A stretch of DNA of 64,000 bases from an uncultured Chthonomonas sp. (GTDB lineage: Bacteria; Armatimonadota; Chthonomonadetes; Chthonomonadales; CAJBBX01): positions 1 to 64,000 of the forward strand of contig CAJBBX010000056.1 in the NCBI GenBank assembly GCA_903951425.1, written 5' to 3'. Positions 2 to 20,000 of the stretch are shown here, in pieces (within the stretch, counting starts at the first letter, position 1; each line of letters opens with the position of its first letter). Position numbers and translations under genes: made by a program. Below the pieces are notes generated by a model. That model was not told the origin of the DNA and did not search any database. It was given only the letters and a program-made list of their open reading frames with translations.

Positions 2-829
2 GACAACTCCACGGTGAGCTACACCTACAACGGCATCGGGCGGCTGACGGGCGAGACCCGCACCGGCACCAACGCCTTCACGGCGAGCTACACCCTGGAC
101 GGCGTGGGCAACCGCACGGCGCAGACCGTGGGCGGCAACACCACCAGCTTCACGCTGAACGCCGACGACGAGCTCACGGCCACCTCCGGCGGCTTCACCA
201 ACAGCTACTCCTACAACGCCAATGGTGAACAGACCGGCCGCACGCTGGGCGGAACCGCCTACTCGCTGAGCTACGACTACGAAGGCCAACTTACCCAGAT
301 CACCCAGGGGCAGACCAGCACCGACTTCGCCTACGACGCTCTGGGTCGCCGGTTCAGCCGCACGGCGGGCGGCACCACCACCGAGTTCGTCTACGGCGCG
401 GGCGGCATGGTCCTCGAGAAGCAGGGCGGCAGCTACACGCAAGCGTACAGCCAGGGCAATGGTCTGCTGCGCAGAGGCTCCGAGTACCCCCTGTACGACG
501 GCCACGGCTCCGAGCGCACCGTTACCAACTCCAGCCAGACCGTGACCGGCTCGGTGAACTTCGAGGCGTTCGGGCAGGTGGCAGGCACCACCGGCAGCAG
601 CACGAACCCCTACATGTACGCGGGCGACTGGGGCTACCGCAACGACGGCGACGCCGGCCTCATGCACGTGGGCGCCCGGTACTCCGACGCGCAGGTGGGC
701 GGTTCATCACTCGCGACGCCGTGCTCAGCGAGCACCCGTACCTCTACTGCGAGCATGAGCCCGCCAACCTCGCCGATGACGACGGACTCTCCAAGAAGAA
801 GGTTCCGCCGCGCCGTAGCCGCGGGTTAG
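2..829 (+). CDS. RHS repeat-associated core protein, C-terminal part (5' end outside window)
   Basis: The reading frame is open from the first bases, so this is only the C-terminal end of a larger RHS/YD-repeat protein. YD-type repeats are visible (YTYNGIGRL, YSYNANGEQTG, YDYEGQLTQI, FAYDALGRRFSR), followed by the RHS core signature (YDGHGSERTVTNSS, YMYAGDWGYRNDGDAGLMHV, GARYSDAQVG). Such proteins form a secreted or surface beta-cage that often carries a variable C-terminal tip. Near position 700 the family sequence jumps to the -1 frame, where GRFITRDAVLSEHPYLYCEH continues to a stop at 838-840. One C appears to be missing from ggc(c)ggttc. As read, the last 35 or so residues are frameshifted. 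No recognisable toxin tip follows. The 3' end lies inside a 61-bp direct repeat. Confidence 0.85.
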   Translation, partial: DNSTVSYTYNGIGRLTGETRTGTNAFTASYTLDGVGNRTAQTVGGNTTSFTLNADDELTATSGGFTNSYSYNANGEQTGRTLGGTAYSLSYDYEGQLTQITQGQTSTDFAYDALGRRFSRTAGGTTTEFVYGAGGMVLEKQGGSYTQAYSQGNGLLRRGSEYPLYDGHGSERTVTNSSQTVTGSVNFEAFGQVAGTTGSSTNPYMYAGDWGYRNDGDAGLMHVGARYSDAQVGGSSLATPCSASTRTSTASMSPPTSPMTTDSPRRRFRRAVAAG

Positions 830-866
830 TTAACGGGTAGGCCCATGTCGCGCAGGTGGCGGCGGA
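806..866. repeat. 61-bp direct repeat, left copy
   Basis: Positions 806-866 are identical base for base to 3500-3560; the match ends at both sides with mismatches (805/3499 and 867/3561). This copy contains the corrected stop codon of the RHS gene (838-840). The other copy contains the last codons of the nucleotidyltransferase gene. The two copies bracket the lower-GC MBOAT/SGNH pair, so they look like the scar of an insertion or recombination event. Confidence 0.9.
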
Positions 867-919
867 TGAGAGGTTCAGATGTCCGACCGTAGCTTATGAG
901 TGCACGGCACTCTCGCCGA

Positions 920-2320
920 TTAGAACTGGAAATATATGAAAGGTGATGTGTTATCGGGAGCAAAGTACAGTATCCCGAGCAGCACGAACACCGCACAGAC
1001 CTGACCGCGCCACGACCCTAGATCCAGCCGAGGGTAATCGGGGCGTCTCGACCCCACATAGTGCGCAACTGCAAAGACAGGAGCAATCACCAGCAACGCG
1101 GTCGCGTACCATGCCACGCCGCCCGTAGGACCAAGCAGCAACATCTTCCGCATCACGATGCCGATGCTGTCGACATGCTGGCACCTGAACACGACCCACG
1201 TGAATGCCACGAACAGCATGGTAAGAACCCAGTTCACCGAGTTCAGCAGCACCTGGGGCCCGCTTGCTGGTACACGGACACATCGTCCCCACGCGCGATG
1301 GGCAATGAGTCCAAGCCCGTGCAAGCCGCCCCAGAGCACGAATGTCCAGTTGGCGCCGTGCCACAAGCCACACAGTAGCATCACCAGCATCAGGTTAGCG
1401 TACTGACGCGCCACGCCGCGCCGGTTCCCTCCCAGTGAAAAATATAAGTACTCCCTAAACCATGTAGAAAGTGATATATGCCATCGTCTCCAGAACTCTG
1501 CAATGTTTAATGCCACATAAGGTGACCTGAAATTGTAAGGCAAGTCAAAACCAAGCATGCATGCAGATCCGATCGCCATATCTGAGTAGCCGGAGAAATC
1601 ACAGTAAATCTGAAACGCATACGCGATTACAGCAAGCCATACAGTGCCTGACGTCCACATAGACGGTTCAGCAAAGACCTGATCGCAGAAGGGAGCTAGG
1701 CGATCCGCCACAAGCAGTTTTTTCAGCAAGCCGAGCACGAATATCTGAGCTCCGCGGTCGAGACCGTTACGCGTCACAGTGATCGGCCCCTGCAACTGAG
1801 GGAGGAAGTGGCGCGGTTTGAGGATGGGCCCGGCTATCAGGTGCGGGAAGAACGCGACCAGCAAGCCAAGATCGAGCAACGATGGTGCCGGCTCGCACTC
1901 CCCCTTGGAGACATCGATCAGGTAACTTATTACTTCAAATATCATGAACGATATGCCAACAGGAAGTATTAAGTGCAGCAGTGGAAGGCTAGTGCCGGTA
2001 AATGCTATTATATCAGTTAGGCCAGACATAAAAAAATCGTAATACTTAAATACCACTAGTATTGTTACGTTAAAACATATTCCCAGGCGAAGCCAGCGCG
2101 ATGCGTGCCGGGTGGGCGGCCTCGATACCGCGAGGGCAACTGCGTGGTTCGCTCCGGTCAGTAGCGCAAGCAGGAGGAGGAACCGGGCGTCCCAACAGGC
2201 GTAGAAATATGCACTGCACATCAATAGCCATATCTTGCGCGAACGATTTGTTCGGAATATCGCAACGCCTGCAATCGCCACAGACAACATGACAATGTAC
2301 GCCATGCTGGAAAATATCAT
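920..2320 (-). CDS. MBOAT family O-acyltransferase (AlgI/PatA-like)
   Basis: A multi-pass membrane protein of 466 residues, a usual length for AlgI-type membrane-bound O-acyltransferases that move acetyl groups across the membrane to exported polysaccharide. The family core is present: EFWRRWHISLSTWFREYLYF (about residues 275-294) and GLWHGANWTFVLWGGLHG (318-335), with His321 in the position of the invariant catalytic histidine. The start overlaps the stop of the SGNH gene upstream (ATGA, 2317-2320), so the two are translationally coupled, which matches the usual AlgI plus SGNH partner arrangement. Base composition is much lower in GC than the surrounding 65-70% DNA, including AT-rich runs near 1981-2060, and the pair lies between 61-bp repeats. 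Horizontal acquisition is likely. The acceptor glycan is unknown. Confidence 0.92.
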   Translation of the reverse strand: MIFSSMAYIVMLSVAIAGVAIFRTNRSRKIWLLMCSAYFYACWDARFLLLLALLTGANHAVALAVSRPPTRHASRWLRLGICFNVTILVVFKYYDFFMSGLTDIIAFTGTSLPLLHLILPVGISFMIFEVISYLIDVSKGECEPAPSLLDLGLLVAFFPHLIAGPILKPRHFLPQLQGPITVTRNGLDRGAQIFVLGLLKKLLVADRLAPFCDQVFAEPSMWTSGTVWLAVIAYAFQIYCDFSGYSDMAIGSACMLGFDLPYNFRSPYVALNIAEFWRRWHISLSTWFREYLYFSLGGNRRGVARQYANLMLVMLLCGLWHGANWTFVLWGGLHGLGLIAHRAWGRCVRVPASGPQVLLNSVNWVLTMLFVAFTWVVFRCQHVDSIGIVMRKMLLLGPTGGVAWYATALLVIAPVFAVAHYVGSRRPDYPRLDLGSWRGQVCAVFVLLGILYFAPDNTSPFIYFQF

Positions 2321-3417
2321 AATGTTCTCGCGATGGCCGATGCCAGCTCATGTGCAACCAAGTCATGCCCAACTTGGTTGAGATGTCCCTCCCCGGGGGC
2401 GGTGTTGTCAAACCCATTCGGGAACGCATGTCGCCGATCCAGGCACGCCGCAAATGCCGATCGCATACTAACGAACGGTACGCCAATCTCGCCGCACGCC
2501 GATCGGAGAGCGACCTCATCTGGCGCAGATGCAACCGCGCGGCTCCGGCAGTCGGTTGGTATGTACAGCACTACCATGCGGTCGTAGCTACGCTTGAGTT
2601 CCTTAATCGCCCATCTGATCACCGCAGGGTCCACTGGGTCCGGTGCTTCAGAGGCTGTCACTGCGGGCCCTGCCTGCCGCCTCTGGGTGATGCGCTTCAC
2701 CTGCAGGCGTGCAAGCCGGACGACAGACCGAGTGCGTAGCCAGTTCAGGAGAGCGTTGTCGACCGACCCCAACCGCGGAGGCGCGTCGTACCGGACCTCT
2801 GGGCCGCGGGGTGTTCGGTTGATGTAGTAGCCCTTTTTGCCTGCAGAATAGGCCTCTGGTCCGAATGAACCGGACCGAAACTGCACGATGGTGATGTCAG
2901 GGGCCACCATGGATGCATAGGCTGGGGCCTGCCCCAGGAGCGTGGCTGCCAATGCTCCGCTGTGGCCGGCATTCGCAACATACACGGGCATGCCCTTGCT
3001 GCGCACCAGTACGCCGGCCCTCTCGGCGAACGTCTCCCTGTCGGGTACCTGCAGGGCCTCAGTGAACGAATCACCGACAAACAGCAACCGATACTCGCCT
3101 GACCTGGACGGCGGAGTGTCGGCGCCACGAAGCCCATCGGCGGCTATCCTCGCCCGGCAGAAACCCTCTTGCATCGATACGTATGTGCCGGGCGCCGTCA
3201 CTGTGCCGAGTACGCGATGAGGGCGATCGGGTGGTAGACGGAAGTACACGGCCTGCAGGATGGCTTCCCAGGCCAAGAGGGCTACGCACACCGCTGCGAT
3301 CCAGCTAAGACAAGCTCGCATGGAACGCCGAAAGCGGGGGACTTGGCCGCAGTGAGTAGCATCGGGCGTACCCGCATCAACATGACTGGCTTGGTGGAAA
3401 ACTCCGTGGCGGCTCAA
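2317..3417 (-). CDS. SGNH/GDSL hydrolase-like O-acetyltransferase partner (AlgX/DltD-like)
   Basis: About 366 residues with one N-terminal membrane segment (near residues 36-58) and an outside catalytic domain. The SGNH block I motif is LLFVGDSFTEALQV, with Ser117 as the likely nucleophile. A C-terminal GEGHLNQVGHDLVAHEL supplies the block V histidine. Proteins of this type work beside an MBOAT channel and transfer the acetyl group to the exported polymer. The start chosen is TTG at 3417, preceded by AAAGG at good spacing; an ATG at 3321 just before the membrane segment is the alternative. The gene overlaps the MBOAT gene by 4 nt and shares its island between 61-bp repeats. GC is intermediate. 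The substrate cannot be told from sequence. Confidence 0.82.
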   Translation of the reverse strand: MSRHGVFHQASHVDAGTPDATHCGQVPRFRRSMRACLSWIAAVCVALLAWEAILQAVYFRLPPDRPHRVLGTVTAPGTYVSMQEGFCRARIAADGLRGADTPPSRSGEYRLLFVGDSFTEALQVPDRETFAERAGVLVRSKGMPVYVANAGHSGALAATLLGQAPAYASMVAPDITIVQFRSGSFGPEAYSAGKKGYYINRTPRGPEVRYDAPPRLGSVDNALLNWLRTRSVVRLARLQVKRITQRRQAGPAVTASEAPDPVDPAVIRWAIKELKRSYDRMVVLYIPTDCRSRAVASAPDEVALRSACGEIGVPFVSMRSAFAACLDRRHAFPNGFDNTAPGEGHLNQVGHDLVAHELASAIARTL

Positions 3418-3499
3418 CTAGGTACCTTTCATATGGCCGAGTAGAACATCGCCCCCATTCTAGCATAGGCCCCAGACCTCGACGCCTCCTCCCGGCACG

Positions 3500-3560
3500 C
3501 GCCGCGCCGTAGCCGCGGGTTAGTTAACGGGTAGGCCCATGTCGCGCAGGTGGCGGCGGA
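3500..3560. repeat. 61-bp direct repeat, right copy
   Basis: This is the second copy of the sequence at 806-866, identical over 61 bases. On the minus strand it covers the stop codon and about the last 13 codons of the nucleotidyltransferase gene (3520-4335), whose reading frame is intact here. That suggests this is the ancestral copy, and that the RHS-side copy was created when the intervening 2.6 kb arrived. Confidence 0.9.
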
Positions 3561-4335
3561 CGGCTTGCTCGCGGGCTTCGGGGTAGGCCAGGCCACGGAG
3601 GGCGCAAAGGGCGCGGGCGTCGTCGGCGAAGAGGTCGATCGAGCGGGCCAGGGCCCGCGCCGCCGCGGTGTTTCCCGCCACGCAGAAGTAGGCGCGCAGG
3701 TGGGTTCGGTCGCGCGTGGTGAAGCGGGCCACGTCGCCCGCCCACCAGTTCCCCTCGGCCCCGGTGCGGAGGAGGTTGAGCAGCCGCACGTGGAGCTGGA
3801 AGAGGGTCTGCTGCACAAAGAGCAGCTTGTACATGTCCTGCCGACGCCAGTACTTGCCGTCCAGGTAGGCATAGACCCAGTAGGTATCGATGAGGTGGGC
3901 CGCCTGGGCGTCGCCGAACACCTGGGCCGGACGTTCCATCTGCTGGACCTCGGCCAGGAGCCCGGTGCGGTCGAGGATGACGCGATCCGGGCGGCGCCGC
4001 CACTCGACGAAGAGCGACCGCGAGATCAGCTCGAAGTCCGTCAGCAGCAGCTCAGAGCCATGCTCGAAGAGGAACGCGAAGTTGCAGTAGTTCGGTCGAT
4101 CGCCCTCGGGCAGCCAGATGCTGATGGGTCCGAAGAGCTCGGCGCAGAGGCCGGGCATCTCCGCCTTCACCGCCTCGTAGGCCTCGTCTTCGATCACGGC
4201 GCCCACGTCGATGTCTGAGTAGGCGTCGGTCTCGCCGCGCCCGATGGAGCCGTGCAGCGCCAGGCCCAGGCAGCGCGGGTCGGCGCTGAAGCGCGCCACG
4301 CAGCGATCGAGCGATTGGAGGAGGTATGGGTGCAT
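3520..4335 (-). CDS. nucleotidyltransferase domain protein (aminoglycoside adenylyltransferase-like)
   Basis: 271 residues. The N-terminal domain carries the polymerase-beta nucleotidyltransferase signature: GSIGRGETDAYSDIDVGAVI, with the GS pair at 29-30 and metal-binding aspartates in SDID (41 and 43). The rest is helical and resembles the C-terminal part of aminoglycoside-type adenylyltransferases, with several Trp/Tyr-rich stretches. Such enzymes transfer AMP or another nucleotide to a small molecule or protein. No resistance function can be claimed from this alone. The gene stands alone on the minus strand, divergent from the nuo operon. Its last codons form the right copy of the 61-bp repeat. 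Confidence 0.8.
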   Translation of the reverse strand: MHPYLLQSLDRCVARFSADPRCLGLALHGSIGRGETDAYSDIDVGAVIEDEAYEAVKAEMPGLCAELFGPISIWLPEGDRPNYCNFAFLFEHGSELLLTDFELISRSLFVEWRRRPDRVILDRTGLLAEVQQMERPAQVFGDAQAAHLIDTYWVYAYLDGKYWRRQDMYKLLFVQQTLFQLHVRLLNLLRTGAEGNWWAGDVARFTTRDRTHLRAYFCVAGNTAAARALARSIDLFADDARALCALRGLAYPEAREQAVRRHLRDMGLPVN

Positions 4336-4572
4336 CGTGCAGGCTCCTGTCGGCGTGTATCGTCCGGCAGTCTACCCGTCCACGCAGAGCAGGGTAAGGC
4401 GCGGCCCGGGCGGCGCCCGCTGCGGCCGACCTGGACGCCTGCGGGAGCAGACCGTGCCACACTCTCGTACTGCTCGAAAGCAGCATCCAGAGATGCGGCC
4501 GTCTTGGCGCGGCAGGTATCTTAGACTGGACCCGTCGGACGCCCACACGAAGAGGAGGCCGAGCGCACCCGC

Positions 4573-4926
4573 ATGAACGCATACCTGACGGCGGCCATGT
4601 TCACCATTACTGGCTTCGCCTTCATCGCGAGTACCCTCCTCATCTCGCGCATCCTGCGCCCTTCGGCGCCGAACCCGGACAAGCTGGAGACCTATGAGTG
4701 CGGCCCGTTGCCCGTGGGCGACGCCTGGCGGCAGTTCAACCTCCACTACTACCTGTTCGCGCTGGTCTTCGTGGTGTTCGACGTCGAGGCCGCATTCCTC
4801 TACCCGTGGGCTGTGGCGTTCAAGCTTGAGGGGCCCTATGCCGTGGCGGAGATGCTCATCTTCGTGGCGTTGCTGCTGGCCGGATGGGCCTACGCGTGGA
4901 AGCGCGGCGCCCTGGAGTGGGAATAG
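4573..4926 (+). CDS. nuoA: NADH-quinone oxidoreductase subunit A
   Basis: 117 residues with three membrane helices. The family core is visible in the loop between helices 1 and 2: KLETYECGPLPVGDAWRQF, then FNLHYYLFALVFVVFDVEAAF, including the conserved Cys and the acidic residues of helix 2. NuoA is a small membrane subunit at the junction of the hydrophilic and membrane arms of complex I. It opens an operon in which nearly every gene overlaps the next by a few bases. An AGGAGG lies at 4553-4558, about 14 nt before the ATG, which is a long but usable spacing. The 237-bp gap upstream, shared with the divergent nucleotidyltransferase, must hold the operon promoter; I could not pick one with confidence. 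Confidence 0.96.
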   Translation: MNAYLTAAMFTITGFAFIASTLLISRILRPSAPNPDKLETYECGPLPVGDAWRQFNLHYYLFALVFVVFDVEAAFLYPWAVAFKLEGPYAVAEMLIFVALLLAGWAYAWKRGALEWE

Positions 4927-5487
4927 ATGGCCGAACCGTTGACCCAGCAGGAAGTCGATACCTGGCGCCTGCCCGTGCCTGGAGGCGCGCTCATCGTGGC
5001 GCCGCTGGACCGACTGACGCAGTGGGCCCGGCGCAACTCGCTCTGGTCTCTCACCTTTGGCCTCTCCTGCTGCGCCATCGAGATGATGGCCACCGCGGGA
5101 TCGCGCTATGATCTCGACCGCTTCGGCATGTTCTTCCGGGCCACGCCCCGCCAGGCCGACGTGATGATCGTGGCTGGCTGGGTCTCGGTGAAGATGGCCC
5201 CCTTCATCCGCCGCCTGTACGACCAGATGCCCGAGCCGAAGTACGTGATCGCCATGGGCGGTTGCGCCTCGGCCGGCGGCCCTTACCGCGACAGCATCAC
5301 GGTGGTGAAGGGCGTGGACCAGTTCGTGCCTGTCGACGTCTACGTCTATGGCTGCCCGCCCCGCCCGGAGAACCTGATCAACGGCATCCTACACCTGCAG
5401 GAGCGCATCCGCCACGAGAAGGCGCTGACGCGACGCGGAGCGCCCGTCCCCGCCCGCGAGCCGGTCATCATCGGAGGCGAAGCGTGA
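4927..5487 (+). CDS. nuoB: NADH-quinone oxidoreductase subunit B
   Basis: 186 residues. This subunit holds the terminal iron-sulfur cluster N2, which passes electrons to quinone. The four ligand cysteines are in place: the tandem pair in [10 protein letters not shown] (Cys48, Cys49), one in [12 protein letters not shown] (Cys113) and one in [12 protein letters not shown] (Cys143). The ATG directly follows the nuoA stop codon. The C-terminal tail after the fold is short and charged. Nothing is missing for function. Confidence 0.97.
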
Positions 5488-5987
5488 GCGCCCCCGCCGA
5501 GGCCGCCCTCGACGCCCTTCGCAAGGCCCTGGGCGACGGCCTGCAGTCTTGCTCGCTGGACGGCGGCACGCTGCGCCTGCAGGTAGCGTCCGCTTCGCTG
5601 CACCAGGCAGCCCTCCACCTGCGCGACGCCGACGGGTTGCGGTTCGACTACCCCGGCGACCTGTTCGCCTGGGACACGGGCGAGCGGTTCGTGGTCGTCT
5701 ACCGCCTCTGGTCCACGACGCTCTCCCAGACCGCCCTGCTGCGCGTCGAACTGGAGCGCGAAGGGGCCGCCGTCGCCAGCGTCACCGACATCTGGCCCGG
5801 CATGAACTGGCACGAGCGCGAAGTCTACGACCTCTACGGCATCGAGATCGTGGGGCACCCGGATGCCGGCGACCCGACCCGCATGCGCATCTTGTTGCCC
5901 AAGGATTGGGAGGGCTTCCCGTTCCGCAAGGACTACGTGCCCGTCTTCTCGGGCGATCCGCTCCACGGGCCGCAGGAGACCAATTGA
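5484..5987 (+). CDS. nuoC: NADH-quinone oxidoreductase subunit C
   Basis: 167 residues, of the 30-kDa subunit family in the peripheral arm. The recognisable core is [19 protein letters not shown], then [20 protein letters not shown] and a C-terminal [20 protein letters not shown], the family signature near the quinone module. The GTG start at 5484 overlaps the nuoB stop (GTGA), with GGAGG a few bases upstream; this start gives the expected length. It is a separate gene, not fused to nuoD as in some proteobacteria. Confidence 0.95.
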
Positions 5988-7108: not shown

Positions 7109-8253
7109 GCCTGCCTCCGCTTCGCAGGCCCGCGCCGACCCGGACCGGGTTCGAGTGCGATCGCGCGTTCGTCGCCGGGCAGTTCGCCGCGGGCGTCGCC
7201 GTGCTGGTCGCGGCCATCGCCGTCGCCTCGGCGTTGCCGCGCCTGCCATGGCGCTTGGTCGATCCGGCGCTGATCCTGATCGGCAGCCACCCGGTGATCA
7301 ACGCGCTGGTGAAGGCGCTGACCGTCACGGTCTTTGTGACCATCCACGTCATCTTCCTGATCTGGCTCGAGCGCAAGTTCGCCGGATGGATGCAGGCGCG
7401 GCTGGGGCCCATGCACGTGGGCTGGAAGGGCGCCCTCCAGACGATCGCCGATGCGGTGAAGCTGCTGATGAAGGAGGACATCATCCCCACGCGGGCTGAC
7501 CGTGTCCTCTTCGTCGTGGCCCCGTTCCTGACCTTCATGCCCACGCTGCTCACGTTCATGGTCCTGCCGTTCAGCGAGACCTGGGTGGCCTACGACTTCC
7601 CGCTGGGCATCCTCTTCGTGCTGGCCGTCACCACCAACATCTCCCTGGGCACGCTGGCCGCAGGCTGGGGCGCCAACAACAAGTACTCGTTGCTGGGCGG
7701 GGCTCGAGCCTGCGCGCAAGTGCTCTCCTACGAGATACCGATGGCGGTGGCCATGCTCGCGGTGGTCACCCTCGAGGGCACCATGTCGCTCACCGAGATC
7801 GTGAAGAACCAGCAGCATGGGTGGAACATCATCGCCCACGCGCCGGTCATGATCCCGGCCTTCCTGATCTTCATGGTGTGCGGCCTGGCGGAGCTGAACC
7901 GCACCCCGTTCGACCTGCCCGAGGCCGAGTCCGAGCTAGTCAGCGGCTTCCATACCGAGTATTCGGGCATGCGCTTCGCCTTCTTCTACCTTGGCGAGTT
8001 CGCGGCCAACTTCTTCACCGCCGGCCTGGCCGTGACGCTCTTCTTCGGCGGCTGGATGGGACCGTGGCTCCCGGCGCCGATCTGGTTCGGCATCAAGACC
8101 ATCGCGGTGGTGGCGCTCTTCATGTGGATCAAGTGGACCGTTCCGCGATTGCGGGTGGACCAGATGATGGGCTTCTGCTGGAAGCTCCTCGTGCCCGCCT
8201 CCGTGGTCGTCTTCTGCGCCACGGCGCTCTGGGTGATGGTGGCGCAACCATGA
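7105..8253 (+). CDS. nuoH: NADH-quinone oxidoreductase subunit H
   Basis: 382 residues with about eight or nine membrane helices. NuoH is the membrane subunit that completes the quinone-binding site. The signature loops are present: IWLERKFAGWMQARLGPMHV, then GWKGALQTIADAVKLLMKED, and LAELNRTPFDLPEAESELVS with its quinone-site acidic residues, followed by GFHTEYSGMRFAFFYLGEF. The ATG overlaps the nuoD stop, and GGAGG stands just upstream. The N-terminus carries about 60 extra residues before the first family helix, a little long but within range. Confidence 0.96.
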   Translation: MSLPPLRRPAPTRTGFECDRAFVAGQFAAGVAVLVAAIAVASALPRLPWRLVDPALILIGSHPVINALVKALTVTVFVTIHVIFLIWLERKFAGWMQARLGPMHVGWKGALQTIADAVKLLMKEDIIPTRADRVLFVVAPFLTFMPTLLTFMVLPFSETWVAYDFPLGILFVLAVTTNISLGTLAAGWGANNKYSLLGGARACAQVLSYEIPMAVAMLAVVTLEGTMSLTEIVKNQQHGWNIIAHAPVMIPAFLIFMVCGLAELNRTPFDLPEAESELVSGFHTEYSGMRFAFFYLGEFAANFFTAGLAVTLFFGGWMGPWLPAPIWFGIKTIAVVALFMWIKWTVPRLRVDQMMGFCWKLLVPASVVVFCATALWVMVAQP

Positions 8254-9675: not shown

Positions 9676-9681
9676 CGCCGA

Positions 9682-11742
9682 ATGACCTCCGCCATCGGCC
9701 TCATACCCATCCTTCCCGTCGCGGCCGCCGCTGTCGCCGGCTTCCTGGCCATCATCAGGAAGGCCGAGAAGGCCGCGCCGCTCTTCACGCTGGCAGCCAC
9801 GCTTGCCGCCGGCGTGCTGGCCCTGATGAACATGCCGGGCGCCGGCATCGCGCCCCACGTAGCCGCTCCCTGGGTTAACCTGATCCCCACGGACGCAGCG
9901 CTGGCGGCGCCGCCGGGACCCACGCACGGCATGCCGCCGGGCCTGAGCGTCGTGGTGGGCGTTACGCTGGACCCGCTCTCGTGGATCATGGTGCTGGTGG
10001 TCTGCAGCGTCAGTGCGCTGGTTCAGATCTACTCCATCGGTTACATGGCCGCCGAGAAGGGCTACGCCCGCTACTACTGCTACCTGGCGCTCTTCACCGC
10101 CTCCATGCTGGGGCTCGTGACCGCCGACAACCTCTTCCAGCTCTACGTCGGCTGGGAGCTGGTGGGCGTCTGCTCTTACCTGCTCATCGGGTTCTGGTGG
10201 TTCAAGCCCTCAGCCGCCAACGCGGCCAAGAAGGCCTTCGTGGTGACGCGGTTCGGCGACGTGGGCTTCATGCTGGGCGTGCTGCTGCTCGTCTCGGTGG
10301 CGCAGTCCTTCAAGTTCACCGATGTCTTCGCCGCGTACCAGGCTGTGGCCGACGGGTCGCTGGCGGTGCACGGGCTCTTCAGCGCGCAGACCTTCCTCTG
10401 GCTAGCTCCGCTGCTGCTTCTCTGCGGAGCCATCGGCAAGTCGGCGCAGTTCCCCCTGCACGTTTGGCTGCCGGACGCCATGGAAGGCCCCACGCCGGTC
10501 AGCGCCCTGATCCACGCGGCGACCATGGTGGCGGCCGGCGTCTACATGGTAGCGCGGCTCATCCTTCTCTTCACCCTCCAGGCCGGTGGAGGCGCCGGCG
10601 CGGCGCTGGACGTGGTGATGATCCTGGGCGCCGTGACGGCCCTCATCGCCGCGACCATCGCGCTGGTGCAAGTCGACATCAAGAAGGTCATGGCCTACTC
10701 AACCATCAGCCAGCTCGGCTACATGATGGTCGGGCTCGGCGTGGGCGGCGCCACCGGGCAGGTGGCGGGGATGTTCCACCTCGTGACCCACGCCTGTTTC
10801 AAGGCCCTGCTCTTCCTGACAGCGGGTTCAGTGATCCACGCGCTGCACCACGCCAAGGACCCCAACGACATGCGCAGCATGGGCGGCCTCATGCGCCGGA
10901 TGCCGCACACGGCGATCACCTGCGGCATCGGCGTGCTGGCCCTGGCCGGTTTCCCGCTCCTCTCGGGCTTCTGGAGCAAGGATGCCATCCTGGCGGTGGC
11001 GCTGCAGCGCGCGGGCCTCTTCGGCCATGCCGCGGGAGCAGGTCCCCACGCGCATGTGGCGCTGGCTTGCGGCGTCGCCGGGCTCATCGCGGCGTTCCTC
11101 ACGGCCGTCTACTCGGCCCGCATGTGGCTGATGACCTTCTGGGGCAAGCCGCGCAGCGACGAGGCCGCCCACGCCCATGAATCGCCCGCCGTGATGACGC
11201 TGCCGCTCTGGGCGCTGGCGATCCCCTCCGTGGCGGCGGGCTTCCTGCTGGCCCACGGCGAGCGCTTCGCCACCTTCGTGCTGGGCGGGGAGCCCGGCCC
11301 CTCCCACGAGAACATGGCGCTCTCCATCGTCGCGTCAGCAATCGCATTGGCGGGCTTGGGCCTGGGCGCCCTGCTCTACGCGCGCTGCCCGGCGGTGGAC
11401 CCGGTGACGCGCCTGCCGCGGCCGGTCTACGCGCTCTTCTCGAACCTCTGGTACGTCGACGCATTCTGGAGCGCCGGCGTGGCGCGGGGCTCCCTGGCCT
11501 TCGGACGGGCAGTGGCGTGGTTCGACCGCAGCGTGATCGACGCTTCCATGCACGGCATCGCCTGGCTCGTGGAGCAGGCAGCCCTGGGCATGCGGCGCTC
11601 GGTCTCCGGCCAAACGCAGACCTACGCCGCCGTGCTGGTGGCGGGAACCGTTGCCGTCGTACTGCTGATGACCCTCTACGAACAGGTTGTGGGCAGCCCC
11701 GGACCGGCCGCGGCGGCCGCAGGATGGATGGTGCGCCGATGA
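9682..11742 (+). CDS. nuoL: NADH-quinone oxidoreductase subunit L (proton-pumping, Mrp antiporter-like)
   Basis: 686 residues, typical for NuoL, with about 15-16 membrane helices and the C-terminal lateral helix region. Key segments: DNLFQLYVGWELVGVCSYLL with the helix-5 glutamate, then KSAQFPLHVWLPDAMEGPTP and VSALIHAATMVAAGVYM with pump-channel Lys and His residues, and the second lysine in VDIKKVMAYSTISQLGYMM. It is the distal pump module of complex I. The gene begins six bases after nuoK with GAAGGGG upstream, and overlaps nuoM (ATGA). Confidence 0.97.
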   Translation: MTSAIGLIPILPVAAAAVAGFLAIIRKAEKAAPLFTLAATLAAGVLALMNMPGAGIAPHVAAPWVNLIPTDAALAAPPGPTHGMPPGLSVVVGVTLDPLSWIMVLVVCSVSALVQIYSIGYMAAEKGYARYYCYLALFTASMLGLVTADNLFQLYVGWELVGVCSYLLIGFWWFKPSAANAAKKAFVVTRFGDVGFMLGVLLLVSVAQSFKFTDVFAAYQAVADGSLAVHGLFSAQTFLWLAPLLLLCGAIGKSAQFPLHVWLPDAMEGPTPVSALIHAATMVAAGVYMVARLILLFTLQAGGGAGAALDVVMILGAVTALIAATIALVQVDIKKVMAYSTISQLGYMMVGLGVGGATGQVAGMFHLVTHACFKALLFLTAGSVIHALHHAKDPNDMRSMGGLMRRMPHTAITCGIGVLALAGFPLLSGFWSKDAILAVALQRAGLFGHAAGAGPHAHVALACGVAGLIAAFLTAVYSARMWLMTFWGKPRSDEAAHAHESPAVMTLPLWALAIPSVAAGFLLAHGERFATFVLGGEPGPSHENMALSIVASAIALAGLGLGALLYARCPAVDPVTRLPRPVYALFSNLWYVDAFWSAGVARGSLAFGRAVAWFDRSVIDASMHGIAWLVEQAALGMRRSVSGQTQTYAAVLVAGTVAVVLLMTLYEQVVGSPGPAAAAAGWMVRR

Positions 11743-17228: not shown

Positions 17229-18343
17229 TCCGCACCGGCGCGGTCGCCCGCCTGGCGGCGGTGGCGGCGACCGCGCTCATGTCGTGCCGAACCGTTGCTG
17301 CACCCGGCCGGCCGGCCGATCGCGTCTGGGTCGGGCCCATGCCCTTCGTGTCCGATCGCACGTTCCGGTCGGACTACCTGCCTATGCTGTTGGATGAGCG
17401 CCTCTGGCCCACGGTGCTGAAGCGCACGCAGGTCCTGAAGTCCTACCTCATGGTCCTGCCCTCGGACCCGGTTCCCGGCAAGCGCGCGCCGGAGGCGTCC
17501 GACGAGCAACTGCGTGCCCTGGCCCGCTTCGTGCGGCGGCATCGGCTGAAGGTGGCCGTCGAGGTGGGCGGCATCCGTATGGCGGCGGATACGCCGTGCG
17601 ACCAGGCGGGCGAGACCACCGCCCAGGGCGAACTGCGCCACCTGCGGAGGTGGCTCAAGGCCGGCGGCAGAATCGACTACCTCACCACCGACCATGCCGT
17701 CATGATGACGGTCGGCGCCCCCTACGTGAACCCAAAGTCCTTCGCGCACAGGGGCATGACCGTGTCCGACGCCATCGGCGAGTTGGCCGACTACTTCTCC
17801 ATTATGCACCGGGCCATCCCCGGCGCCCGGCTGGGCATCATCGAGTCGCTGGGCTTCTTCACGGTGGATGCGGGGAGCCGGACCTACCTGCGCACGGTCC
17901 CAGCGCTACCTGTCTGGCGCTTCGACGAGTTCATCGCTGAGGTGGTGGAGGCGATGCATCGGCGCGGGCTCCGGCTGGACCACTTCCATGTGGACTTCGG
18001 ATGGGAGGGCGCCCGGCACGACGGGCTGGGCAAGCCGGACTGCGGACGCATCCTGGCCGTAGAGGCCGCGCTTCGGCGGCACGGCGTGCGGCCGGGTGTG
18101 ATCATCAACGCCTTCCATGACGGCATGGCGGCCAACCCCGACCCGGCCGAGGCGTCGCGGCAAGCCGTGGCGAACACGCTCCGTTTCACGGATGCGTACC
18201 TGGCTACTGGCGGAGCCGCCGACCACCTGGTGGTGCAGACGTGGCAGCCGTACCCGGACCGCACAGGCCCCGAGACCGACCCCAACACCGTGCTGGGCCT
18301 GGCAGAGGCGGTCCTCGATCGCCTGCCCCTCGATCGACGGTAG
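17225..18343 (+). CDS. secreted protein of unknown function, TIM-barrel-like, last gene of the nuo unit
   Basis: 372 residues from a GTG that overlaps the nuoN stop codon. The N-terminus (AVARLAAVAATALMSC) looks like a signal peptide, possibly a lipoprotein type. I do not recognise the family. The body alternates hydrophobic strands and helices as in a TIM barrel (KVAVEVGGIRM, IDYLTTDHAVMM, ARLGIIESLGF, LDHFHVDFGWEG, RPGVIINAFHDG). Acidic and His residues at strand ends could form a hydrolase site, so a glycosidase-like function is a guess from fold and from the GH36 neighbour. Its stop codon is inside the left copy of a 19-bp repeat. Confidence 0.7.
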   Translation: MIRTGAVARLAAVAATALMSCRTVAAPGRPADRVWVGPMPFVSDRTFRSDYLPMLLDERLWPTVLKRTQVLKSYLMVLPSDPVPGKRAPEASDEQLRALARFVRRHRLKVAVEVGGIRMAADTPCDQAGETTAQGELRHLRRWLKAGGRIDYLTTDHAVMMTVGAPYVNPKSFAHRGMTVSDAIGELADYFSIMHRAIPGARLGIIESLGFFTVDAGSRTYLRTVPALPVWRFDEFIAEVVEAMHRRGLRLDHFHVDFGWEGARHDGLGKPDCGRILAVEAALRRHGVRPGVIINAFHDGMAANPDPAEASRQAVANTLRFTDAYLATGGAADHLVVQTWQPYPDRTGPETDPNTVLGLAEAVLDRLPLDRR

Positions 18344-18357
18344 CCCCTACGCCGGCC
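18339..18357. repeat. 19-bp direct repeat, left copy
   Basis: GGTAGCCCCTACGCCGGCC recurs exactly at 19024-19042. It has internal symmetry (GTAG-CCC-CTAC, then GCCGGC), like a small REP element. This copy contains the stop codon of the preceding gene. The two copies bracket the DUF433/DUF5615 pair. Confidence 0.75.
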
Positions 18358-18418
18358 TTGCAGTACGGCGTCGCGGATGGGCGGTAGAATGCACCATGCA
18401 ACGAACCGGGAGGCACCC

Positions 18419-18664
18419 ATGACAAGCGCGGCGCTACTGGGCCGGATCACATCGCGGGCCGATGTCTTCTCCGGCAAGCCGATCATCCGCAACATGCGAA
18501 TCTCGGTAGAGATGATCCTCAGCTTGCTGGAGCAGGGCGAATCCGAGCAGACGATCCTTGCCGACTTCCCGGCGTTGGAGACCGACGACATCCGGGCTTG
18601 CTTCGCGTACCCCAGGGCGGTAATCGGCCGCGACTCCTTTGACGCTGTCCGCCTAGCCGTCTGA
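18419..18664 (+). CDS. DUF433 family antitoxin-like protein
   Basis: 81 residues. The sequence matches the DUF433 pattern well: LLGRITSRADVFSGKPIIRN, MRISVEMILSLLEQGESEQT, ILADFPALETDDIRACFAYP. DUF433 proteins are small winged-helix or HTH-type proteins usually paired with a PIN-like DUF5615 protein and regarded as VapBC-like antitoxins. The ATG is preceded by GGGAGG at 8-nt spacing. The stop codon overlaps the ATG of the DUF5615 gene (TGATG), which is the normal arrangement of the pair. Since the partner is broken, this antitoxin may now be an orphan. Confidence 0.85.
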   Translation: MTSAALLGRITSRADVFSGKPIIRNMRISVEMILSLLEQGESEQTILADFPALETDDIRACFAYPRAVIGRDSFDAVRLAV

Positions 18665-19011
18665 TGCGGTTTCTCGTGGACCGGTGTGCGGGCCGGCTCC
18701 TCGCGGACTGGCTCGAGCGTCAGGGCCATGACGTGGTCGATGCCGGGTTGCTTGGACCCGACCCGGGCGACCGGGCCCTGCTCGAACTCGCCGCCGCGGG
18801 TGATCGCGTCCTGGTCACAATCGACAAGGACTTCGGACATCTGCTCTAAGTCCACGGCTACAGGCATGCGGGGCTGATACGGCTACCGCACGTTCCAGCC
18901 ATTGAGCGTGTTCGTCTGGTTGGGCAGGTGTTGGATAGGCGCTCTGACGACCTTGCGGGCCGGGCCATTGTTACCGTGCGCGGCGACCGGATTCGTGCGT
19001 CTCGGGCGTAG
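18664..19011 (+). pseudogene. DUF5615 PIN-like toxin gene, interrupted by an in-frame stop
   Basis: The frame encodes MRFLVDRCAGRLLADWLERQ, GHDVVDAGLLGPDPGD and VLVTIDKDFGHLL, a clear DUF5615 PIN-like N-terminal half with the acidic residues Asp6 and Asp55-57. It then hits TAA at 18847-18849 (codon 62). The same frame continues without a shift as VHGYRHAGLIRLPHVP, GQVLDRRSDDLAGRAIVTVR and GDRIRASRA to a stop at 19009-19011, exactly the missing C-terminal half. Intact length would be about 115 residues. A single nonsense mutation has therefore truncated the putative toxin, or the base is an assembly error. Confidence 0.85.
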
Positions 19012-19023
19012 CGCATGCAGCAA

Positions 19024-19042
19024 GGTAGCCCCTACGCCGGCC
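19024..19042. repeat. 19-bp direct repeat, right copy
   Basis: Exact copy of 18339-18357. On the minus strand it includes the stop codon of the ADP-ribosylglycohydrolase gene. The core CTACGCCGGC also occurs at 45988-45997 within a hairpin, so it may be a dispersed short repeat of this genome. Confidence 0.75.
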
Positions 19043-20000
19043 CTGCTGCACGACCTGCGCGGAGATCGGCGAGCCGTTCGCCTGCCGCGGTGACGCGCTC
19101 TCGCTCGTGCAGCTTCGCCAACCACCGACCCGGTACGGCGCCCCGGCCCCAGATGACCCCGGCGGCTCCGCCCGCCACGGCTGCAATCGTGTCGGCCTCG
19201 CCTGCGAGGTTCACCGCCGAGACGATGGCCTCCTCAAGGCTTGCCGCGTTCAGGCAGCACCAGACGGCGGCCTCCAGGCAGTCCACCACGTAGGCAGCGT
19301 ACCCCGTCGGTTGGAGTTGGTCGCACCGCTTCGCCGGGATCGATGCCAGACGGTCCCAGAACCCGCTGGGCAGGCCCGCAGGACCGGGCGTGTCATCCGA
19401 CATCCTGCCCTGAGCGGCGAGGGCCTGCGCCGCGCCCAACGCCGCCTCCCATGCCGCAAGCCGCTCGACGCCACACAACAGCGCCTGCACCCAGAGGCAG
19501 TAGACCGCGCAACAGACCTCAGCCTGGGGATCCCAATGGGTCATGGCGGAGATGCGGGCGGAGGCCTTGAGCATCTCGTGCCGGTCGGCGTAGGCGAGGG
19601 CGACCGGCAGCGTACGCATGAGCGATCCGTTGGCCGCCGCGCGGCCGGCCCGCGCCGAGGGCGTACTCCGCGACGCGTCTGCCCAGTCGCCCGCGTAGGC
19701 GGAGAGCGCGGCCCCGATGGTGGTCCCGATGTCCTTCGGGTGTCCGTGGTACCACTCCAGGAACCGCGCGCCGACGCTTGCGACAGGATCATCCGGGTTG
19801 TCCAGGATGCCCTCGGCGACGGCGAGCGCCAGGGCGGTGTCGTCGGTCCATTCGCCCGGCGCCCAGCAGCCTCCGCCCGTCATCTCGGTCAGCACGCCCC
19901 AGGTGGCCTGGACCTCCTCGAGCGTCTTGAACTCGGCCGGCGCTCCCAGGGCGTCGCCACAGGCCAGACCCAACATGCCGCCGATGATCCTGTCTCTCAT
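19032..20000 (-). CDS. ADP-ribosylglycohydrolase family protein
   Basis: 322 residues, the full length of the DraG/ARH family, which removes ADP-ribose from proteins or small molecules. Signature segments: IIGGMLGLACGDALGAPAEF at the N-terminus, GEWTDDTALALAVAEG with the metal-binding Asp pair, and AVNLAGEADTIAAVAGGAAG with the second metal site before the C-terminal helices. All expected magnesium ligands appear present. AAGGAG stands 8 nt before the ATG. It runs opposite to the preceding pair and is followed downstream only by the 19-bp repeat. The target is unknown; proteobacterial homologues act on nitrogenase reductase, but many others act on other substrates. Confidence 0.9.
   Translation of the reverse strand: MRDRIIGGMLGLACGDALGAPAEFKTLEEVQATWGVLTEMTGGGCWAPGEWTDDTALALAVAEGILDNPDDPVASVGARFLEWYHGHPKDIGTTIGAALSAYAGDWADASRSTPSARAGRAAANGSLMRTLPVALAYADRHEMLKASARISAMTHWDPQAEVCCAVYCLWVQALLCGVERLAAWEAALGAAQALAAQGRMSDDTPGPAGLPSGFWDRLASIPAKRCDQLQPTGYAAYVVDCLEAAVWCCLNAASLEEAIVSAVNLAGEADTIAAVAGGAAGVIWGRGAVPGRWLAKLHERERVTAAGERLADLRAGRAAGPA

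What the first reader, a model, noticed from the sequence alone, without database searches (positions are those of the whole stretch)
806..3560. 61-bp direct repeat bracketing a low-GC acyltransferase/SGNH island
806-866 and 3500-3560 are identical. The left copy holds the RHS stop codon and the right copy the end of the nucleotidyltransferase gene. Between them lies the MBOAT/SGNH pair, markedly poorer in GC than its surroundings. No transposase or integrase remains. It looks like cargo that arrived with duplication of its target, or recombination between two copies.
Basis: seen in the sequence. Interest (0 to 1): 0.6.

Follow-up and report, generated by a model that had tools for sequence, protein, structure and literature searches.

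The report
Gene-pair insertion bracketed by duplicated target
Two genes for decorating the cell surface were inserted between two overlapping genes of this bacterium and left a 61-base copy of the target on each side; a sibling species still shows the empty site with one copy, and several other small insertions in this genus have the same layout, so foreign genes seem to enter here without any recognisable transposon machinery.

Summary
806-866 and 3500-3560 are identical over 61 bp, the only two copies in the genome, and the 2,633 bp between them (57.5% GC, lower than any of 1,406 sampled segments) hold only an MBOAT-SGNH pair. Sibling species G001 has RHS joined directly to the nucleotidyltransferase with exactly one repeat copy and no island. 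G002 also lacks the island. The first interpretation, cargo that arrived with duplication of its target, is therefore supported. No integrase or inverted ends exist, no Ku was detected, and repeat or SGNH gene was not found in the phage, viral or plasmid collections searched.

The layout recurs. Of eight clean insertions found between the three siblings, four are bracketed by 39-106 bp copies of a target that is single in a sibling, with different cargo (MBOAT-SGNH, DUF433-DUF5615, DUF6883, DUF2971). This matches the published 'insertion with long target duplication' (ITD), described mainly for restriction-modification genes of Helicobacter pylori; I file it as a new member with different cargo. 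The joining reaction is inferred (illegitimate or template-switch integration, kept because the duplication leaves both neighbours whole). The pair looks like a complete PatA/PatB-type acyltransferase.

The parts
806..866 (.). left copy of the 61-bp direct repeat: 20 bp of the RHS tail plus 41 bp of the nucleotidyltransferase 3' end
   Evidence: exact match to 3500-3560; single copy in the G001 empty site
3500..3560 (.). right copy of the 61-bp direct repeat; contains the real 3' end of the nucleotidyltransferase gene
867..3499 (.). inserted island, 2,633 bp, 57.5% GC
   Evidence: absent from G001 and G002; lowest GC of 1,406 segments
920..2320 (-). MBOAT O-acyltransferase, 466 aa, with WHG catalytic-His motif and C-terminal FIYFQF acyl-shuttle motif
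   Evidence: Pfam PF03062 E=5e-34; DltB structures E=1.5e-29; motif alignment
2317..3417 (-). SGNH/GDSL protein of the MBOAT-SGNH pair; the true start is probably ATG at 3319-3321 by alignment with relatives
   Evidence: PF13472 E=7e-6, below Pfam's curated cut-off; GDS block I; relatives paired with MBOAT in G023 and G027
3520..4335 (-). flanking nucleotidyltransferase (Adenyl_transf/NTP_transf_2); its 3' end is the duplicated target
14..829 (+). flanking RHS/YD-repeat fragment, frame-shifted tail; its 3' end is the other half of the duplicated target; the contig begins inside it
18339..18377 (.). left copy of the imperfect 39-bp repeat of a second insertion with the same layout
19024..19063 (.). 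right copy of that repeat; contains the stop of a convergent ADP-ribosylglycohydrolase-like gene
18378..19023 (.). second insert, 646 bp: DUF433 gene (ORF 18377-18664 +, beginning at the repeat boundary) and a decayed DUF5615/PIN-like gene; single-copy empty site in G001 and G002

Best explanation
[quoted passage not shown] SHOWN: exact 61-bp duplication; one-copy empty site in a sibling; no island in two siblings; atypical GC; no recombinase, no inverted ends; both flanking gene ends kept whole by the duplication; the same layout at three other loci with other cargo and other repeat lengths. INFERRED: foreign DNA was joined by illegitimate or template-switch recombination. The repair fork ran to 866, switched to the incoming DNA, then returned to the chromosome about 61 bp behind its departure point. 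Insertions of this form survive between tightly packed genes because each neighbour keeps a complete end. The insertion is recent: the flanks differ from G001 by only 3 bases in about 2.2 kb, against 4-6% or more beyond. The cargo would O-acylate a surface polymer: MBOAT loads an acyl group on the Tyr of its FIYFQF tail and hands it to the periplasmic SGNH protein.
For: Exact repeat, two copies only. Empty site in G001 with one copy and both flanks colinear; island absent from G002, which also lacks the 20-bp RHS half of the repeat next to its nucleotidyltransferase, so the duplicated unit is the pre-existing RHS/nucleotidyltransferase junction of the G000/G001 lineage. SGNH absent from all f1-family relatives searched, nearest relatives 28-32% (SGNH) and 47-50% (MBOAT) identical in another family of the order. 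Lowest GC of 1,406 segments. Terminal inverted-repeat score not above shuffles. Four of eight clean insertions among the three siblings carry significant boundary repeats: scores 112, 48, 142 and 116 against a random-pair median of 19 and 99th percentile of 31. Case 2 is empty in both siblings. In case 3 the two copies resemble each other more than the sibling's single copy, so they arose by duplication in that lineage. Published precedent: RM systems insert with long and variable, order of 100 bp, target duplications (PMC3874152; PMC1643837).
Against: No donor sequence is known, so junction microhomology, the expected mark of template switching, could not be tested. Only one genome per species is held, so within-species presence or absence is unknown. 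The nearly identical tract around the site shows homologous exchange between the two lineages; the empty state in G001 could be a later precise loss. Published ITD cases are mostly restriction-modification genes, not acyltransferases.
Confidence: 0.62

Rival explanations
1. Site-specific integration: a tyrosine-recombinase element used the nucleotidyltransferase 3' end as attB, the 61 bp are attL/attR, and the integrase was lost or acts in trans.
For: Length and position (3' end of a gene, gene kept whole) resemble att repeats; the cargo sits exactly between the repeats.
Against: No integrase and no room for one; the repeat was not found in viral contigs and the SGNH gene not in viral contigs, phages or plasmids; the other three insertions in the genus have unrelated repeats of 39-106 bp at unrelated sites, which one integrase does not explain; the 61 bp include 20 bp of lineage-specific RHS tail.
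Confidence: 0.13
2. Homologous (Campbell-type) integration: a circle, or DNA from a relative already carrying island plus repeat, crossed over at the 61 bp.
For: Flanks are nearly identical to G001 over about 2.2 kb spanning the site, while the surroundings differ by 4-6% or more, so homologous exchange did happen here; 61 bp could support a crossover.
Against: It moves the origin of the repeat-island unit to another genome and does not explain it; no circle or second locus with the repeat is known.
Confidence: 0.15
3. G001 is not ancestral: both species once had the island and G001 lost it precisely by recombination between the 61-bp repeats.
For: Precise loss would give exactly the G001 sequence; the repeats are long enough for deletion.
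Against: G002 also lacks the island and no sibling shows a remnant; this still requires a gain with duplication earlier.
Confidence: 0.07
4. Assembly artefact: the second repeat copy or the island was placed there by the assembler (61 is a common k-mer length).
For: Draft assembly of 188 contigs; the island lies 0.9 kb from a contig end; raw reads not available.
Against: The repeat is lineage-specific coding sequence, so a foreign contig would need it at both ends; the other insertions have diverged repeats of different lengths (39, 68, 106 bp, roughly 85-95% identical) in two separate assemblies, which no fixed k produces.
Confidence: 0.03

Closest known systems
Insertion with long target duplication (ITD; Nobusato et al. 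2000 Gene 259:99, cited in PMC1643837 and PMC3874152)
   Same: Insertion seen by comparing two related genomes, bracketed by long direct repeats of variable length (order of 100 bp) copied from a target that is single in the relative; described as moving without a known mobile element.
   Different: Published bacterial cases are mainly restriction-modification genes in Helicobacter pylori; here the cargo is an MBOAT-SGNH acyltransferase pair and, at the sister loci, DUF433-DUF5615, DUF6883 and DUF2971 genes, in an unrelated genus.
Tyrosine-recombinase genomic islands with att direct repeats at gene 3' ends
   Same: Direct repeat made of a gene's 3' end, gene restored by the repeat, foreign cargo between.
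   Different: No integrase; no shared att among the insertions of the genus; only 2.6 kb of cargo.
Classical transposons and IS elements with target-site duplication
   Same: Target copied on both sides of the insert.
   Different: Their duplications are short (IS1 8-10 bp, IS5 4 bp: PMC3031569); they have inverted ends and a transposase. None of that is here.
PatA/PatB and related MBOAT-SGNH acyltransferases (PMC12148441)
   Same: Adjacent MBOAT and SGNH genes; MBOAT with WHG histidine motif and C-terminal FXYXXF acyl-shuttle motif (FIYFQF here).
   Different: The SGNH partner has Gly in place of the usual block V Asp three residues before the His, also in its two nearest relatives; acyl group and polymer unknown.

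Membership tests
Insertion with long target duplication (ITD) | relative has the uninterrupted target in single copy | tested here: met
   G001:C171 50015-50075, one copy, both flanks colinear
Insertion with long target duplication (ITD) | direct repeat of tens to about 100 bp flanking the insert, copied from the target | tested here: met
   61 bp, identical to the G001 single copy
Insertion with long target duplication (ITD) | repeat length varies between insertions of the same genome or genus | tested here: met
   61, 39, 106 and 68 bp
Insertion with long target duplication (ITD) | no associated transposase or integrase and no inverted ends | tested here: met
   ORF list and Pfam; terminal-repeat test
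Insertion with long target duplication (ITD) | restriction-modification cargo (frequent association, not definitional) | tested here: not met
   cargo is MBOAT-SGNH; no defence-library hit for either gene
Integrase-type genomic island | integrase gene next to one att | tested here: not met
   only two ORFs of note in 867-3499
Integrase-type genomic island | attP on a mobile element | tested here: inconclusive
   42-bp core of the repeat not found in IMG/VR; metagenome contigs could not be scanned
DNA transposon / IS | terminal inverted repeats and short fixed target duplication | tested here: not met
   TIR score 10 vs shuffled mean 12.3; 61-bp duplication
MBOAT-SGNH polymer acyltransferase pair | MBOAT domain with catalytic His and C-terminal FXYXXF motif | tested here: met
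   PF03062; GLWHGANW and FIYFQF at the C terminus; motif definition from PMC12148441
MBOAT-SGNH polymer acyltransferase pair | SGNH partner with Ser-His-Asp triad | tested here: inconclusive
   GDS Ser and block V His present, usual Asp absent; PF13472 below curated cut-off
MBOAT-SGNH polymer acyltransferase pair | acyl transfer to an envelope polymer | not testable with these tools
   needs biochemistry

The most novel reading that the evidence does not exclude
This genus has a cargo-independent insertion pathway: small foreign gene cassettes of any kind are repeatedly joined into the chromosome with 40-100 bp of target duplicated, without a recombinase of their own and without Ku, perhaps by a host replication-repair or DNA-uptake system, so that ITD is a general route of gene gain in bacteria rather than a property of restriction-modification genes.
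Probability: 0.35. Interest if true: 0.65.

Novelty: new member of a known kind. Interest (0 to 1): 0.45.

Why it matters
How small foreign genes enter bacterial chromosomes without transposons or integrases is an old open question. This locus gives a very recent, clean example with the empty site preserved in a sibling. The sister loci suggest that about half of the clean insertions in this genus (4 of 8, a small sample) use the same form, with cargo unlike the restriction-modification genes for which ITD was described. The duplication also explains how insertion between overlapping genes is tolerated.

Tried and rejected
NHEJ with fill-in of staggered ends: not favoured, as no Ku (PF02735) was found in the genome. 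Phage or plasmid origin: repeat core absent from viral contigs, SGNH absent from viral contigs, phages and plasmids. Transposon ends: no terminal inverted repeats in this or the other two inserts tested. A fifth candidate (G000:C12 112483/114498, glycosyltransferase-methyltransferase gene) was dropped: its boundary score of 27 equals the 95th percentile of random pairs. Donor search among 85,000 genomes returned only distant MBOATs, at most 44% identical; own-genome records are withheld there. The 37-bp repeat around the homologous pair in G023 (L161 5838/10421) is a partial copy of a neighbouring dehydrogenase gene, and no empty site was available to test it. A nested 34-bp gene-end copy in G001:C134 (7362/9678) was left out of the count because the event is complex.

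Full report
OBSERVATION. The window is the start of contig C56 of a 6.08-Mb draft genome in 188 contigs. A 61-bp sequence occurs exactly at 806-866 and 3500-3560 and nowhere else in the genome. It is the only exact direct repeat of 28 bp or more within 15 kb in the whole window. The left copy contains the TAG (827-829) that ends the RHS reading frame, and the right copy contains the stop (3520-3522) of the nucleotidyltransferase on the other strand. Between them lie an MBOAT gene (920-2320) and an SGNH gene (2317-3417), both on the minus strand. GC of 867-3499 is 57.5%, below all 1,406 sampled segments of the same length.

EMPTY SITE. Two genomes of the same genus are held. In G001 (C171) the sequence runs from the RHS end straight into the nucleotidyltransferase with exactly one copy of the 61 bp. 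G001 has no SGNH homologue and only MBOATs of 35-40% identity. G002, more distant, also lacks the island. Its nucleotidyltransferase end is conserved, but the 20 bp of RHS tail in the repeat are not there. So the 61 bp are a junction that existed in the G000/G001 lineage before the island, and the island arrived together with a second copy of it.

TIMING. Between the window and G001 there are no differences in 674-866 and three in 3500-5499. From 5500 onward most 250-bp bins hold between 5 and 52 differences. A short tract around the site was therefore exchanged recently between the two lineages, and the gain of the island (or, less likely, its loss in G001) is younger than that exchange or part of it.

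RECURRENCE. Stretches of the three siblings were aligned (209 kb G000/G001, 160 kb G000/G002, 107 kb G001/G002). Eight distinct clean insertions of at least 250 bp were found. Four have long direct repeats at their boundaries, copied from a target that is single in a sibling: the present 61 bp; 39 bp at window 18339/19024, single in G001 and also in G002; 106 bp at G001:C149 13860/14679, single in G000:C96; and 68 bp at G001:C134 6072/7410, single in G000:C83. Boundary-repeat scores are 112, 48, 142 and 116; 3,000 random pairs gave median 19, 95th percentile 27, 99th percentile 31 and 99.9th percentile 76. The score of the second case alone is only moderately rare, but its repeat lies exactly at the insertion boundary and is single in two siblings. 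Cargo: MBOAT-SGNH; DUF433 with a decayed DUF5615/PIN-like partner; DUF6883; DUF2971. In cases 1 and 2 the target is the junction of two convergent genes with overlapping or nearly touching stop codons; in case 3 it is a short intergenic stretch; in case 4 a gene end. Other clean insertions lacked such repeats; two of these are present in both G000 and G002 and are probably deletions in G001.

MECHANISM. A long, variable target duplication without transposase, integrase or inverted ends does not fit IS elements, which leave 4-10 bp (PMC3031569), nor one integrase, because the four targets are unrelated. Ku was not found, which speaks against fill-in by end joining. The form fits insertion with long target duplication, described in H. 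pylori and other prokaryotes chiefly for restriction-modification genes (Nobusato et al. 2000, via PMC1643837; 'in the order of 100 bp', PMC3874152). I infer illegitimate or template-switch joining, with survival bias: between tightly packed genes only an insertion that duplicates both gene ends leaves both genes whole. The joining reaction itself is not shown, and no donor is known.

CARGO FUNCTION. The MBOAT matches PF03062 and DltB structures. It keeps the WHG histidine motif and ends in FIYFQF, the FXYXXF acyl-shuttle motif that PatA-type MBOATs carry (PMC12148441; alignment). Its nearest relatives (47-50%) are also paired with an SGNH gene in another family of the order, in the opposite gene order. 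The pair is intact and probably O-acylates a surface polymer. The SGNH partner lacks the usual block V Asp in all three proteins compared, so its chemistry may differ.

LIMITS. One genome per species, draft assemblies, no raw reads, no metagenome scan. Host phylum is not named by the tools. A prepilin-like protein of a family relative ([32 protein letters not shown]...) recalls Armatimonadota from memory only; this was not tested.

VERDICT. Real feature, interpretation supported, known kind with new cargo in a new genus; the recurrence across loci is the most interesting part and deserves a whole-genome count.

Noticed in passing
window 18339-19063: Second insertion of the same form: 646 bp with a DUF433 gene and a decayed DUF5615/PIN-like gene, bracketed by an imperfect 39-bp repeat; one copy in G001 and G002.
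   Followed up: yes
L171/L172 (G001:C149 13860-13965 and 14679-14784): 106-bp repeat, 92.5% identical, around a 713-bp insert with a DUF6883 gene; G000:C96 has one copy.
   Followed up: yes
L205 (G001:C134 6072-6140, 7410-7477; also 7362-7395 and 9678-9711): 68-bp repeat around a DUF2971 insert next to a Gp49/HTH toxin-antitoxin-like region; a 34-bp copy of a downstream gene's 3' end sits at the insert's edge, as if two cassettes had been fused by unequal recombination between alleles.
   Followed up: partly
window 674-866 and 3500-5499 against G001:C171: About 2.2 kb nearly identical to G001 while the surroundings differ by 4-6% or more: a recent homologous exchange that straddles the insertion site.
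   Followed up: partly
L014 (G002:C111) and L013 (G001:C171), RHS side: Several repeated RHS core fragments with different tails lie in tandem next to the nucleotidyltransferase, like an array of displaced Rhs tail modules; the tail next to the nucleotidyltransferase differs between G002 and G000/G001.
   Followed up: no
window 690-829: The RHS tail is frame-shifted relative to a normal Rhs end (GRFITRD...NLADDDGL is in the next frame), identically in G001.
   Followed up: no
L062 46-123 and 4026-4330 (G000:C12): Short stretches of 60-300 bp with many dispersed, 70-95% identical copies across contigs of all three siblings; one copy lies beside the nucleotidyltransferase in G002 (C111 4939-4997). 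Possibly a dispersed non-coding repeat family.
   Followed up: no
L161 (G023:C395) 5838-5874 and 10421-10457: The homologous MBOAT-SGNH pair of another family is also bracketed by a 37-bp exact repeat, a partial copy of a neighbouring dehydrogenase gene; no empty site available.
   Followed up: partly
window 2317-3417: The SGNH protein and its two nearest relatives lack the usual block V aspartate of the Ser-His-Asp triad.
   Followed up: no
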